Assembly: GCF_003201205.1 (NCBI RefSeq) | Contig: NZ_QICN01000010.1 | Location: 124,001-188,000, forward strand | Source of the DNA: Sinimarinibacterium flocculans | GTDB taxonomy: Bacteria > Pseudomonadota > Gammaproteobacteria > Nevskiales > Nevskiaceae | Reading direction: 5' to 3' | Length of the DNA: 64,000 nucleotides | Shown here: one piece after another, positions 13,964 to 64,000 of the stretch | Position numbering within the stretch: the stretch's first letter is position 1 | How the letters are laid out: every line of letters begins with the position of its first letter | Notes under the pieces: model-generated | Told to the model about the DNA's origin: nothing | Databases searched by the model: none | Seen by the model: only the letters and a program-made list of their open reading frames with translations | Translations under genes and position numbers: made by a program

Positions 13964-13982
13964 CGGTGACTCCGTGTGTGCT

Positions 13983-14094
13983 CCCCTCTCCCGCTTGCGG
14001 GAGAGGGGTTGGGGGAGAGGGCCGCGCGTTAGCGCGGAACCGCCGGCTGCGCCGGCGCCCTCTCCCTGACCCTCCCCCGCAAGCGGGGGAGGGG
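13983..14094. repeat. Palindromic repeat, CCTCTCCCGCTTGCGGGAGAGG family, copy 1
   Basis: A perfect 12-bp-arm palindrome (13983-14008) is joined through a GC-rich spacer with a GCCGGC/GCCGGC inverted pair to a second palindrome (CTCCCCCGC/GCGGGGGAG). It fills the gap between the ACAD and phosphotransferase genes. Other copies are at 16176-16325, 59652-59673 and 63241-63363. Confidence 0.85.
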
Positions 14095-14115
14095 ACTGTG
14101 GGGAGCGTCGGTCGT

Positions 14116-16175: not shown

Positions 16176-16325
16176 GCCCCTCTCCCGCTTGCGGGAGAGG
16201 GCGTTTGGCTACTGGGGAATGACACTGCGTCATTCCCCAGCTTGTACAAACGCGGGAGAGGGCCGCGCGTCGCGCGGACACCCCCCTCACCCTAACCCTC
16301 TCCCCCCGCAAGCGGGTGGAGAGGG
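16176..16325. repeat. Composite palindromic repeat, copy 2, with a nested second hairpin
   Basis: The outer CCCTCTCCCGC/GCGGGAGAGGG element is interrupted by an unrelated perfect hairpin, CTGGGGAATGAC/GTCATTCCCCAG at 16212-16240 (5-nt loop). The sequence then resumes the family pattern and ends with CTCTCCCCCCGCAAGCGGG. This looks like one element inserted into another. Confidence 0.75.
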
Positions 16326-59635: not shown

Positions 59636-59651
59636 GCGGCGATCCGGCTCC

Positions 59652-59673
59652 CCTCTCCCGCAAGCGGGAGAGG
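59652..59673. repeat. Palindromic repeat, CCTCTCCCGC family, copy 3 (minimal)
   Basis: CCTCTCCCGC pairs with GCGGGAGAGG around AA. It lies inside the SDR/acyl-CoA dehydrogenase operon. Confidence 0.8.
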
Positions 59674-59681
59674 CGATATGA

Positions 59682-60902: not shown

Positions 60903-61011
60903 GTCGAGTCTATTGCGCGCGGCGCCGTGCGTCCATAGTCCATCTGCGCGATGTGACGTCGCCGTGTGCGCATCCTTGCGCGCCCGCCTCTGGACAAGTC
61001 TCCGCCGCATA

Positions 61012-61027
61012 GGTGAGTATGACTTAC
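61012..61027. promoter_or_regulatory. Candidate TetR operator, site 2
   Basis: GGTGAGTATGACTTAC differs from site 1 at one base. It lies 60 bp before the enoyl-CoA hydratase start. The pair flanks the divergent promoters and is probably bound by the TetR protein encoded from 63827. Confidence 0.65.
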
Positions 61028-61087
61028 CAATGGCGCCGGCCCCGATGCCGGACCGCTTTCGCCACACCCGTCCAGACAGGAGTTTCC

Positions 61088-61885
61088 ATGTCCGAGTCCG
61101 CCCAGCCCGAGCCGGTCCTCGTCGAGCGCCGAGGCGCCGTGCAGTGGATCACGATCAATCGCGAAGCACGCCGCAATGCGCTCAACGAGGAAGTCGTGCG
61201 CACGATCGACCGGGCGATCGCTGCCGCCGTCGAGGGGGGTGAGGTCCGCGCCATCGTCATCACCGGTGCCGGTGACAAGGCCTTCTGTGCCGGGGCCGAT
61301 CTGGCCAAGGGAACGAAGGGCTTTGCCTTCGCGGTCGACTTCGCGCGGCCGAAGCACTACATCGTCGATCTGTTCAAGCGCCTGCAGGAATGCACGCTGC
61401 CGGTGATCGCCCGCGTCAACGGCCACGTCATGGCCGGCGGCTTCGGGCTGCTGTGTGCCTGCGACATGGCGATCGCTGCCGACGACATCCGCATCGGCAC
61501 CACCGAATCGAAGATCGGCCTCACGCCGATGATGATCCTGCCGTACATGCTGCGCGTGTTGCCGCCGCGCAAGCTGCAGGAGATGTGCATCACCGGCGAA
61601 CAGTTCAGCGCCGCCGAAGCGCTGGAGTGGGGCGTACTCAACTACGTCGTGCCGCGCGCCGAACTCGACGCCAAGCTCGACTGGCTGCTGTCGCGCGTCA
61701 CCGACAAGTCGCCCACAGCGATCCGCCTCGGCAAGCAGGCCTTCGCCGCGATGCGCGACATGGGCCTGCGCGAAGCGCTGGAGTACGCGCAGGCGATGGT
61801 GCCGGTGATGTCCTCGACCGAGGACGCGAAGGAAGGCCTGTCCGCGTTCCAGGAAAAGCGCGCGCCCAACTTCACCGGGAACTGA
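61088..61885 (+). CDS. Enoyl-CoA hydratase/isomerase (AtuE/crotonase family)
   Basis: This 265-residue crotonase-fold protein has VQWITINREARRNALN, VITGAGDKAFCAGADL (oxyanion-hole region) and VNGHVMAGGFGLLCACDMAIA. A strong AGGAG lies before the chosen ATG. It probably hydrates the alpha,beta-double bond of a branched enoyl-CoA (isohexenyl-glutaconyl- or methylglutaconyl-CoA). It starts the plus-strand arm of the cluster with atuA 2 bp downstream. Confidence 0.86.
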   Translation: MSESAQPEPVLVERRGAVQWITINREARRNALNEEVVRTIDRAIAAAVEGGEVRAIVITGAGDKAFCAGADLAKGTKGFAFAVDFARPKHYIVDLFKRLQECTLPVIARVNGHVMAGGFGLLCACDMAIAADDIRIGTTESKIGLTPMMILPYMLRVLPPRKLQEMCITGEQFSAAEALEWGVLNYVVPRAELDAKLDWLLSRVTDKSPTAIRLGKQAFAAMRDMGLREALEYAQAMVPVMSSTEDAKEGLSAFQEKRAPNFTGN

Positions 61886-61887
61886 GC

Positions 61888-63699
61888 ATGCGCGAGCTCG
61901 TTCGCATCGGCTGCGGCGCCGGTTTCTGGGGCGATTCGGCCGAAGGGCCGAAGCAACTCGTCGACTCGGGCCAGATCGACTATCTGGTTCTCGACTATCT
62001 CGCCGAGATCACGATGTCGTTGCTGGCGCGTGCGCGCGCCAAGGACCCGGCTGCCGGCTACGCGACGGACTTTCCGGCGGTGCTGGCCTCGCTGGCGCCG
62101 AAGCTCAAGGCGCAGGGCATCAAGGTCGTGACCAATGCCGGCGGCGTCAATCCGTCGGCTTGCAAGGCCGCCATCGACGAGAAGCTCGCCGCGCTGGGGA
62201 TCGACCTGAAGGTGTCGATCGTCACCGGCGACGACCTGCTGCCGCGCGCAGCCGAGTTTGCCGACGTGAAGGAGATGTTCAGCGGCGCGGCCATGCCGCC
62301 GAAGCTGTGGAGCATGAATGCGTACCTGGGCGCGTTTCCGGTCGCGCAGGCGCTGGCGGGTGGCGCCGACATCGTGCTGACCGGACGCTGCGTCGACAGC
62401 GCGGTCGTGCTCGGTCCGTTGATTCACGAATTCGGCTGGCAGCCCGACGACTACGACAAGCTGTCGGCCGGCAGTCTGGCCGGTCATGTCATCGAGTGCG
62501 GTGCGCAGGCCACCGGCGGTGTCAGCACCGACTGGGAAAAGGTGGCGGGCGACTGGGATCGCATGGGGTTTCCGATCGCCGAATGCCGCGCCGACGGCAG
62601 CTTCGTGGTCACCAAGCCGGCGAACACCGGCGGACGCGTGACGCCGGAGACCGTCGCCGAGCAGATCGTCTACGAGATCGGCGATCCCGCCAGCTACCTG
62701 CTGCCGGACGTGACCTGCGACTGGCGCCAGGTGCAGCTCCGTCAGGTCGGTGACGATCGCGTCGAGGTCAGCGGTGCGAAAGGTCGCGCGCCCACCGACA
62801 GCTACAAGGTGTCGGCTACGTATCAGGACGGCTTCCGCTGCACGGCGATGATGATGATTGGCGGCGTCGACGCGGTCGCCAAGGCCGAGACGGTCGGCGC
62901 CGCGATCCTCAAGCGCACGCGCCGCATGTTCGGCGAACTCGGCCTCGGCGACTACCTGCGCACCGACATCGAGGTGCTCGGCAGCGAGGCCAACTGGGGC
63001 GCGAACGCCCGCCGGCGCGATACGCGCGAGGTGATCCTCAAGATCGCCGTGCATCACGCCGACAAGAACGCGCTGGCGCTGTTCGGCCGCGAATGCATTC
63101 CGCCGGCCACGGCCATGGCGCAGGGCATCACCGGCTTCGCCGGCGGCAGGCCGTCGCCGACGCCGCTGGTGCGGCTGTTCTCGTGCCTGGTGCCGAAGGA
63201 TGCCGTGAAGATCGAAGTGGACGGTTCTCCGTTTCTGGTCCCCTCTCCCGCTTGCGGGAGAGGGTGCCCCGAAGGGGCGGGAGAGGGCGCCGGCACAGCC
63301 GGCGTTCCGCCGCCCGCGGCAGCGGCCCTCTCCCCCGCCCCTCTCCCGCAGGCGGGAGAGGGGAGTCGCACCGTCCCACTCATCACGCTCGCCTACGGCC
63401 GTTCCGGCGACAAGGGCAATGCCGCGAACATCGGCGTACTGGCGCGCCGACCCGAGTTCCTGCCGCTGCTGCGCGAGCAGCTCACCGCCGAGGCAGTGAA
63501 GCGCTACTTCGCACACTTCGTCGAGGGCGACGTGCAGCGCTTCGAGCTGCCGGGGCTGCTCGGCTTCAACTTCCTGATGAGCGAGGCGCTGGGCGGCGGC
63601 GGTATCGCCTCGCTGCGTCACGACCCGCAGGGCAAGATGCTGGCGCAGATCCTGATGGATTTTCCGGTCGACGTGCCGGAAGCCCTACTGTCGACATGA
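61888..63699 (+). CDS. atuA: AtuA-family protein (DUF1446) with C-terminal AtuA domain
   Basis: This 603-residue protein starts MRELVRIGCGAGFWGDSAEG and has VTNAGGVNPSACKAAIDEKL and the DUF1446/AtuA core (about 1-450). It ends with an AtuA C-terminal domain (LAYGRSGDKGNAANIGVLARRPEF to the end). The two parts are joined by residues about 452-492, which are a translated copy of a palindromic repeat. AtuA is required for acyclic terpene use in Pseudomonas citronellolis-type pathways, but its reaction is unknown. It begins 2 bp after the hydratase stop. Confidence 0.87.
   Translation: MRELVRIGCGAGFWGDSAEGPKQLVDSGQIDYLVLDYLAEITMSLLARARAKDPAAGYATDFPAVLASLAPKLKAQGIKVVTNAGGVNPSACKAAIDEKLAALGIDLKVSIVTGDDLLPRAAEFADVKEMFSGAAMPPKLWSMNAYLGAFPVAQALAGGADIVLTGRCVDSAVVLGPLIHEFGWQPDDYDKLSAGSLAGHVIECGAQATGGVSTDWEKVAGDWDRMGFPIAECRADGSFVVTKPANTGGRVTPETVAEQIVYEIGDPASYLLPDVTCDWRQVQLRQVGDDRVEVSGAKGRAPTDSYKVSATYQDGFRCTAMMMIGGVDAVAKAETVGAAILKRTRRMFGELGLGDYLRTDIEVLGSEANWGANARRRDTREVILKIAVHHADKNALALFGRECIPPATAMAQGITGFAGGRPSPTPLVRLFSCLVPKDAVKIEVDGSPFLVPSPACGRGCPEGAGEGAGTAGVPPPAAAALSPAPLPQAGEGSRTVPLITLAYGRSGDKGNAANIGVLARRPEFLPLLREQLTAEAVKRYFAHFVEGDVQRFELPGLLGFNFLMSEALGGGGIASLRHDPQGKMLAQILMDFPVDVPEALLST
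63241..63363. repeat. Palindromic repeat, CCTCTCCCGC family, copy 4, inside a coding region
   Basis: Perfect palindromes at 63241-63264 and 63338-63363 flank a spacer with GGGCGCCGGC and a second inverted stretch. The copy lies in the middle of atuA, has a length of 123 bp and keeps the reading frame open. Confidence 0.9.
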
Positions 63700-63710
63700 A
63701 GCGCATGATC

Positions 63711-63812
63711 GTCCCTTTCGTGTCGAGTAGCCGCGTCGCGGCGTATCGAGACATCGCAAGCCCCTCGATACACCGCCGCGCTGCGCGCAGCGGCACTCGG
63801 GGCGAACGGACT
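63711..63812. repeat. Dispersed ~100-bp palindromic repeat, copy 2
   Basis: In reverse orientation this matches the element at 5661-5763 (shared GTTCGCCCCGAGTGCC, GTATCGAGGGGC, TCTCGATACGC and CTACTCGA blocks). It lies between atuA and the tetR gene. Confidence 0.75.
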
Positions 63813-63826
63813 GGGCTCAGGCACGC

Positions 63827-64000
63827 ATGACGCGCAAGCCGCCGAAAGTCCGAGTGCACGCGCCGCGCCTCGCGCGCGAGCAGCGCGTGGACGAGATTCT
63901 CGTGGCGGCGCGCGACGTGTTCTGCGAGAAGGGCTACGAGGGCACGGCCGTTGCCGAGATCGCCGAGCGGCTCGGCATCGTCGAGGGCACGATCTACAAG
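63827..64000 (+). CDS. TetR-family regulator, N-terminal part (cut by window end)
   Basis: 58 residues are visible: a basic leader, then a TetR HTH (RVDEILVAARDVFCEKGYE, TAVAEIAERLGIVEGTIYK). It probably regulates the adjacent Atu-like cluster, binding the twin GTAAGACTTAC sites. The C-terminal ligand domain is outside the window. The upstream ATG has no clear ribosome site, so the start is tentative. Confidence 0.8.
   Translation, partial: MTRKPPKVRVHAPRLAREQRVDEILVAARDVFCEKGYEGTAVAEIAERLGIVEGTIYK

What the first reader, a model, noticed from the sequence alone, without database searches (positions are those of the whole stretch)
63237..63365. Palindromic repeat translated in frame inside AtuA
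A 123-bp member of the CCTCTCCCGC repeat family, with palindromic ends, fills the junction between the DUF1446 and C-terminal AtuA domains and keeps the frame open. It encodes about 41 Pro/Gly/Ala-rich residues. It is a natural example of a mobile palindromic repeat becoming a protein linker.
Basis: seen in the sequence. Interest (0 to 1): 0.65.

Follow-up and report, generated by a model that had tools for sequence, protein, structure and literature searches.

The report
Palindromic repeat became a protein linker
A scattered DNA repeat in a bacterium related to Solimonas sits inside an enzyme-like gene exactly between its two domains and is read as a floppy 41-residue linker; similar repeats appear to have done the same at this spot about ten separate times, which shows where proteins tolerate invading DNA, although the general phenomenon is already known.

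Summary
Window 63239-63364 is a 126-bp, 80% GC copy of a dispersed palindromic repeat. It lies in frame in a 603-aa AtuA-family protein, between Pfam domains PF07287 (residues 5-444) and PF23544 (496-594), and encodes residues 452-492. The genome holds the hairpin at 52 places (up to 3 mismatches; reversed-pattern control 0). The genome's own second AtuA lacks the insert. Of 104 distinct homologous linkers 89 are repeat-free and 32-43 aa long, 11 carry repeat-type inserts (48-67 aa), 4 are uncertain. The window's is 50 aa, so the repeat has replaced most of the old linker rather than only added to it. AlphaFold predicts it disordered between two folded domains, which are separate chains in solved citramalate lyase.

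It is not a one-off. On a 107-row tree the insert state changes at least 10 times, and the inserts belong to clearly different repeat types, one resembling Neisseria dRS3/CGTC repeats. The same genome has in-frame copies between domains of methionyl-tRNA synthetase and of a fused CoA-transferase. In one homologous pair the linker evolves nearly neutrally.

Best reading: a passive repeat tolerated, and repeatedly fixed, at a junction that accepts soluble spacers. Protein-coding palindromes (RPE, intragenic REPs) are known: a new member of a known kind.

The parts
61888..63699 (+). AtuA-family protein gene, 603 aa, with the translated repeat inside
   Evidence: ORF and translation; Pfam PF07287 488 bits and PF23544 91.5 bits
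61900..63219 (+). AtuA (DUF1446) domain PF07287, residues 5-444
   Evidence: mostly confident in the model; the model matches chain A of citramalate lyase 9evf
63239..63364 (+). palindromic repeat copy (126 bp, two terminal hairpins, inverted overall); 63241-63363 is translated as residues 452-492 [41 protein letters not shown]
63240..63264 (+). hairpin 1 CCCCTCTCCCGC-TT-GCGGGAGAGGG (read as PSPACGRG)
63338..63363 (+). hairpin 2 CCCCTCTCCCGC-AG-GCGGGAGAGGGG (read as PLPQAGEG)
63373..63669 (+). AtuA ferredoxin-like domain PF23544, residues 496-594
   Evidence: 9evf chain B (105 aa) is a weak match, E 6.1e-3
61013..61885 (+). enoyl-CoA hydratase family gene immediately upstream (ends 2 nt before the AtuA start), probably the same operon
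   Evidence: ORF; Pfam PF00378, 198 bits; operon inferred from spacing

Best explanation
A dispersed, non-autonomous palindromic repeat of the host (a Solimonas-like gammaproteobacterium) became fixed in frame in the interdomain linker of AtuA and replaced most of the older linker. Because the element is very GC-rich and palindromic, most frames of its copies are open on either strand, and its reading here gives a Pro/Gly/Ala-rich, disordered 41-residue stretch. The AtuA and ferredoxin-like domains are separate chains in a solved relative, so the junction tolerates many soluble in-frame spacers. The repeat is kept because it is harmless (survivorship), not because of its sequence. SHOWN: repeat identity, frame, position, absence in most homologues, recurrence of repeat-type inserts at the same junction, copies between domains of methionyl-tRNA synthetase and a CoA-transferase. 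INFERRED: movement as a mobile element, disorder (predicted), neutrality, that the fused protein is made and works.
For: Repeat family in the own genome: 52 hairpins, control 0; 69 BLAST matches, both strands counted; 21 longest copies aligned. Insert v no insert: of 130 loci (104 distinct linkers) 11 distinct linkers carry a repeat-type insert, 89 do not (32-43 aa), 4 are uncertain; every length divides by 3 and none holds a stop. At least 10 changes of insert state on a 107-row tree built without the linker; uncertain rows not counted. Multi-copy in their own genomes: inserts of G024, G029, G016, G038, G194 and G019/G044; for G055 only part of the insert matched one other listed place (list cut). 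Same genome: in-frame copies in methionyl-tRNA synthetase before the tRNA_bind domain, and between two CoA_transf_3 stretches. MetG linkers with repeat inserts 5 of 30 read, one of them (G041) by motif only (copies fall inside the other four); CoA-transferase linkers 2 of 20. Disorder: residues 455-479 pLDDT below 50 in a model of mean 86.5, pTM 0.88. Separate chains: 9evf A and B, citramalate lyase; separate matches that look like split genes in G020, G061, G063, G073. Neutrality: linker pN 0.173, pS 0.178 (44 codons) v 0.102/0.313 and 0.025/0.308 in the flanking domains, L003 v L006. Stop depletion: 104 of 126 frames open in 21 copies; random window stretches 79.6 +/- 4.4, 0 of 500 reach 104.
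Against: No strain-level empty site is held (best relative in the genus 78% identical in protein), so the exact insertion event, its ends and any target duplication cannot be read. The near-neutral estimate rests on one pair and 44 codons. No expression or activity data. G030, which branches between G044 and G019, has no recognisable insert, so that clade needs a loss or a second gain. Genomes with far more palindromes, such as G036 (255), have no insert here, so copy number alone does not predict capture. Loci were gathered by similarity to the intact protein, so broken or split genes are under-sampled and the kept frame is partly a matter of selection of loci.
Confidence: 0.85

Rival explanations
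1. The repeat is kept because its DNA or RNA structure does something: for example the very stable mRNA hairpin slows ribosomes between two domains and helps each to fold, or tunes the amount of protein.
For: Fold energy -111.9 kcal/mol, z -9.58; repeat inserts recur between domains in three unrelated proteins.
Against: 89 of 104 distinct AtuA linkers do without; the genome's own AtuA paralogue lacks it; some inserts may be eroded (L005, uncertain). Survivorship alone predicts the same positions. No intrinsic-terminator pattern in 61000-64000.
Confidence: 0.08
2. The amino-acid sequence itself was co-opted: the Pro/Gly/Ala-rich stretch has a selected function such as spacing the ferredoxin-like domain.
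For: Repeat-free linkers have a narrow length range, 32-43 aa, so spacing may matter; inserts are mostly read as Pro/Gly/Ala/Glu-rich peptides.
Against: Insert-bearing linkers run from 48 to 67 aa and differ in sequence; pN about equals pS in L003 v L006.
Confidence: 0.07
3. One old insertion in an ancestor, eroded in most descendants, instead of many captures.
For: Linkers of G019 and G044 are homologous; G008 and G057 have possible remnants. Several deep branches of the tree are weakly supported.
Against: Inserts in the sister paralogues of G044 and G038 are of different repeat types; the fewest changes on the tree are 10; inserts resemble repeats of their own genomes where tested.
Confidence: 0.05
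4. Assembly or sequencing artefact at a repeat.
For: Short-read assemblies often break or misjoin at repeats (general knowledge).
Against: Frame exactly kept; the copy as a whole is unique (next best full-length match 85%, though a 50-nt part matches another place at 98%); it lies 5.8 kb inside contig C10; other assemblies show comparable inserts at the same place.
Confidence: 0.02

Closest known systems
Rickettsia palindromic elements (RPE) in protein-coding genes (Ogata et al. 2000, 2002; not read, known here through the review PMC10969869, passages read)
   Same: Multi-copy palindromic elements of about 100-150 bp, inserted in frame in unrelated genes, giving a translated extra segment thought compatible with the fold.
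   Different: Different host; no CGTC tag (PMC3733652 reports one for RPE sequences; RPE-4 and RPE-6 are its CGTC families); sequence likeness to RPE was not tested. Here one interdomain junction was hit repeatedly, with partial replacement of the old linker.
Intragenic GTAG and CGTC REPs (Di Nocera et al. 2013, PMC3733652; passages and its section 'Genome distribution of REP sequences' read; author name recalled)
   Same: Dispersed palindromes mostly intergenic, some translated inside known genes, including tRNA synthetases; different REPs at about the same site in recB of two Xanthomonas species.
   Different: This element has neither tag; that section calls the remaining intragenic REPs variably located along ORFs, while the three internal copies found in this genome lie between domains (38 sites screened by a rough rule). 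The insert in the G038 paralogue does look like the CGTC-1/dRS3 type (label by resemblance to recalled sequence).
MITEs and BIME/REPIN-type composite repeats (recalled, with PMC10969869 and PMC3733652 passages)
   Same: About 120-150 bp, hairpin at each end, inverted overall.
   Different: No target-site duplication seen; the genome's one RAYT match is flanked by a different, GTAG-tagged repeat.
Citramalate lyase subunits (PDB 9evf, 9erq)
   Same: AtuA-like chain A and a small chain B that weakly matches the ferredoxin-like part.
   Different: There two chains; here one fused polypeptide joined by the repeat-encoded linker; activity of this protein not known.

Membership tests
AtuA (PF07287 plus PF23544) | both domain models above their curated cut-offs, in order | tested here: met
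   488.1 bits (cut-off 22.8) and 91.5 bits (cut-off 27)
protein-coding palindromes (RPE-like in kind) | multi-copy palindromic element read in frame inside a known gene, absent in homologues | tested here: met
protein-coding palindromes (RPE-like in kind) | translated product actually made | not testable with these tools
   needs proteomics
CGTC-tagged repeats (RPE-4/6, dRS3) | tetranucleotide CGTC at one end of each unit | tested here: not met
   21 aligned copies with 20-nt flanks show no shared tag, by eye
GTAG REP mobilised by RAYT | GTAG at one end of each unit | tested here: not met
   by eye
GTAG REP mobilised by RAYT | cognate RAYT gene flanked by the same repeat | tested here: not met
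   only Y1_Tnp match in the genome (21 bits, below the cut-off of 23) is a RAYT by NCBIfam (NF047646, 196.6 bits) and is flanked by GTAG repeats; the nearest CCTCTCCCGC copy listed is about 6 kb away
MITE | terminal inverted repeats | tested here: met
   26-nt arms, 96% complementary
MITE | target-site duplication | tested here: inconclusive
   none evident by eye in 20-nt flanks; no close empty site held
MITE | related autonomous transposon with the same ends | not tested
   only the Y1_Tnp family was searched

The most novel reading that the evidence does not exclude
Junctions between domains that are separate subunits elsewhere act as standing sinks for whatever palindromic repeat the genome carries: the AtuA linker has been overwritten about ten times by at least two clearly different repeat types in gamma- and alphaproteobacteria, and methionyl-tRNA synthetase and CoA-transferase junctions behave alike. 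Such capture may be more than tolerance: a stable hairpin between domains could pause translation and help domains fold one after the other.
Probability: 0.15. Interest if true: 0.75.

Novelty: new member of a known kind. Interest (0 to 1): 0.5.

Why it matters
It turns an anecdote into a countable natural experiment: at one protein junction, filled and empty sites, different repeat types and different ages can be compared across genera. That makes it possible to ask what DNA a protein tolerates between domains, whether such linkers are neutral, and how selfish repeats become protein sequence. It also warns annotators that stretches like PSPAxGRG or PLPQAGEG can be repeat-derived.

Tried and rejected
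RAYT mobilisation: the only Y1_Tnp match is a RAYT flanked by a different GTAG repeat, so it is not shown to move this repeat. A guessed motif for the RAYT flank found nothing. Intrinsic terminator: none found. Rfam: three matches far below their gathering scores, taken as chance on GC-rich hairpins. Reading-frame preference of hairpins in linkers: CCCTCTCCC read in the LSR frame 1 of 17 times, but events are not independent and the purine arm did not show it (6 of 21), so not used. A first alignment of minus-strand loci without turning them gave nonsense rows and was redone. Plasmid records: 12 held repeat matches, none over 80% of the stretch; the gene itself matched one record over half its length, 72% identical. 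Literature: the repeat as text gave 16 papers, none of the 15 listed about this repeat by title; 'Solimonas' with 'repeat' and 'palindrom' gave four papers, none about such repeats by title and abstract start; the AtuA search was swamped by Portuguese words. Other repeat papers were seen as search listings only; passages were also read in PMC2267715.

Limits: whether the 38 merged repeat sites lie in genes rests on a stop-to-stop ORF and codon-position GC rule and Pfam for 7 proteins besides AtuA; 3 are internal in known proteins (AtuA, MetG, CoA-transferase), 2 more (nitronate monooxygenase C-end, COX3-like N-end) are terminal, the other 33 were not shown to lie inside a gene. Insert calls in linkers were mine, from DNA hairpins and peptide motifs. 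Copy number was then checked for 7 AtuA inserts (L003, L011, L028, L019, L161, L171, L115; G055 = L019 only in part), not for the G044 and G016 paralogue inserts, although the G016 paralogue matches the other G016 insert (86%). Four distinct linkers (L005/L075, L092/L160, L129/L167, L155) were left uncertain and not counted in the tree. L120 was dropped from the tree as too short. The tree's 10 changes count the G019/G044 insert twice (or one gain and one loss, because of G030) and the two different inserts of the G044 and G038 paralogues once. Named homologues are the best 80 of 563. MetG linkers were read in 30 of 58 genomes, CoA-transferase in 20 of 58 (loci limit).

Full report
What is there. 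The gene at 61888-63699 (+) encodes a 603-aa AtuA-family protein. Pfam places the AtuA domain at residues 5-444 and the AtuA ferredoxin-like domain at 496-594. Between them, 63239-63364 is an 80% GC repeat with 26-nt inverted arms, 96% complementary, each arm itself a hairpin. Its bases 63241-63363 are read in frame as [41 protein letters not shown], residues 452-492. As RNA the 126 nt fold at -111.9 kcal/mol, z -9.58, none of 200 shuffles as good. An enoyl-CoA hydratase family gene ends 2 nt upstream of the AtuA start.

It is a member of a genomic family. The palindrome CCCTCTCCCGCNNGCGGGAGAGGG with up to three mismatches occurs at 52 places of the 4.4-Mb genome, reversed control 0. BLAST with the copy gives 69 matches, both strands counted; the best other is 123 bp long and 85% identical. 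The 21 longest copies align as hairpin, short stem, GGGAGAGGGC...GCCCTCTCCC, hairpin, two of them shortened. By eye their ends show no GTAG or CGTC tag and no evident target duplication. Of their 126 reading frames 104 are open, against 79.6 +/- 4.4 for random stretches of the window and 73.1 +/- 5.5 for base shuffles, 0 of 500 each reaching it. Five of the 21 copies lie in genes or at gene ends; without them 75 of 96 frames are open (arithmetic).

Homologues without it. AtuA matches were found in 81 of 194 genomes searched and in all 11 held genomes of the genus, own included. The linker was read in 130 loci, 104 distinct. Eighty-nine distinct linkers show no repeat and are 32-43 aa long (median 38). 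Eleven carry repeat-type inserts and are 48-67 aa long. Four are uncertain. Every linker length divides by three and none holds a stop; but loci were gathered by likeness to the intact protein, which favours this. The window's linker (50 aa) is only 14 aa longer than that of L009 (36 aa), and few residues outside the repeat are left, so the repeat has largely replaced the older linker. The genome's own paralogue (L170) has a repeat-free linker of 36 aa.

The capture is recurrent. A tree of 107 AtuA rows, built without the linker, needs at least 10 changes of insert state; some of its branches are weakly supported. The count takes G019 and G044, which share one homologous insert but have insert-free G030 between them, as two changes, and the sister paralogues of G044 and G038, whose inserts are of different types, as one; about ten captures remain either way. 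Inserts match other places in their own genomes: G024 (up to 92% over 152 nt), G029, G016, G038 and G194, the genome of the Aquibium record L115, and G019/G044. For G055 only part matched one other listed place. The G038 insert (GTCATTCCCGCG...) resembles the CGTC-1/dRS3 type named in PMC3733652. A looser palindrome pattern gave 0 to 255 places per genome in the 44 genomes counted. Against a simple copy-number effect, G036 with 255 has no AtuA insert.

Same genome, other genes. Among 38 merged repeat sites, two further copies are internal and in frame: C5:240082-240204 in methionyl-tRNA synthetase, before the tRNA_bind domain (614-707 of the 710-aa frame), and C2:160754-160820 in a fused protein with two CoA_transf_3 stretches, just before the second (472-829). 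Both lie in the opposite orientation to the AtuA copy and still give similar peptides. Terminal cases are a nitronate monooxygenase C-end and a COX3-like N-end. In relatives, methionyl-tRNA synthetase linkers carry repeat-type inserts in 5 of 30 read (G000, G024, G044, G029, and G041 by motif only) and the CoA-transferase linker in 2 of 20 (G000, G019).

What the linker does. The AlphaFold model of AtuA (45-row alignment) has mean pLDDT 86.5, pTM 0.88, with residues 455-479 under 50 and no secondary structure from 450 to 492. The methionyl-tRNA synthetase model is weaker (mean 73.7, pTM 0.68, several other poor segments); its residues 545-600, which cover the repeat, are under 50. Foldseek matches AtuA to citramalate lyase chain A (9evf_A, E 1.2e-23, TMt 0.75) and, weakly, its small chain B (E 6.1e-3, TMt 0.66): there the two parts are separate chains. 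Four relatives (G020, G061, G063, G073) give separate neighbouring matches that look like split genes. In the one homologous pair, L003 and L006, the linker has pN 0.173 and pS 0.178 over 44 codons, while the flanking domains have 0.102/0.313 and 0.025/0.308. This fits a tolerated spacer.

How it got there. Dispersal and filled/empty orthologous sites say that the family moves or is copied, but the agent is unknown. The only Y1_Tnp match (21 bits, below its cut-off) is a RAYT by NCBIfam (NF047646, 196.6 bits) whose surroundings hold three copies of a GTAG repeat, not this repeat.

Against the literature. In-frame palindromes are known from Rickettsia (reviewed in PMC10969869, passages read), and GTAG/CGTC REPs inside ORFs from several species, tRNA synthetases among them, with different REPs at about the same site in recB of two Xanthomonas species (PMC3733652, one section and passages read). 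So the kind is known. New here, as far as the searches show, are this repeat type as coding sequence and the repeated capture at one interdomain junction. Those searches cover only the held open-access papers, seen mostly as listings.

Noticed in passing
G000:C5:240082-240204 (L192, gene 337-2433 +): Same repeat in frame in methionyl-tRNA synthetase, before the tRNA_bind domain; 5 of 30 such linkers read in the family carry repeat-type inserts (one by motif only).
   Followed up: yes
G000:C2:160754-160820 (L186): Same repeat, shortened, between the two parts of a fused CoA-transferase family III protein; G019 has a separate insert at that junction.
   Followed up: yes
L171 (G038 AtuA paralogue linker): Linker insert HSRESGNP...LDSRLRGNDE resembles a dRS3/CGTC-1 repeat dimer read in frame.
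   Followed up: partly
G000:C13:39401-40121 (L205): RAYT gene (NF047646) with GTAG-type repeats beside it; the 28-nt pattern with up to 3 mismatches was found only there (3 places).
   Followed up: partly
L129 / L167 (G046 AtuA linker): 88-aa linker with a run of Ser-Pro codons, another way of lengthening the same junction.
   Followed up: no
window 13982-14095, 16178-16306, 59651-59674: Other copies of the repeat in the window, apparently intergenic.
   Followed up: partly
G000:C2:460535-460611 (L187) and C1:324738-324879 (L182): Repeat read as C-terminal tail of a nitronate monooxygenase and possibly as N-terminal extension of a COX3-like protein; start site uncertain.
   Followed up: partly
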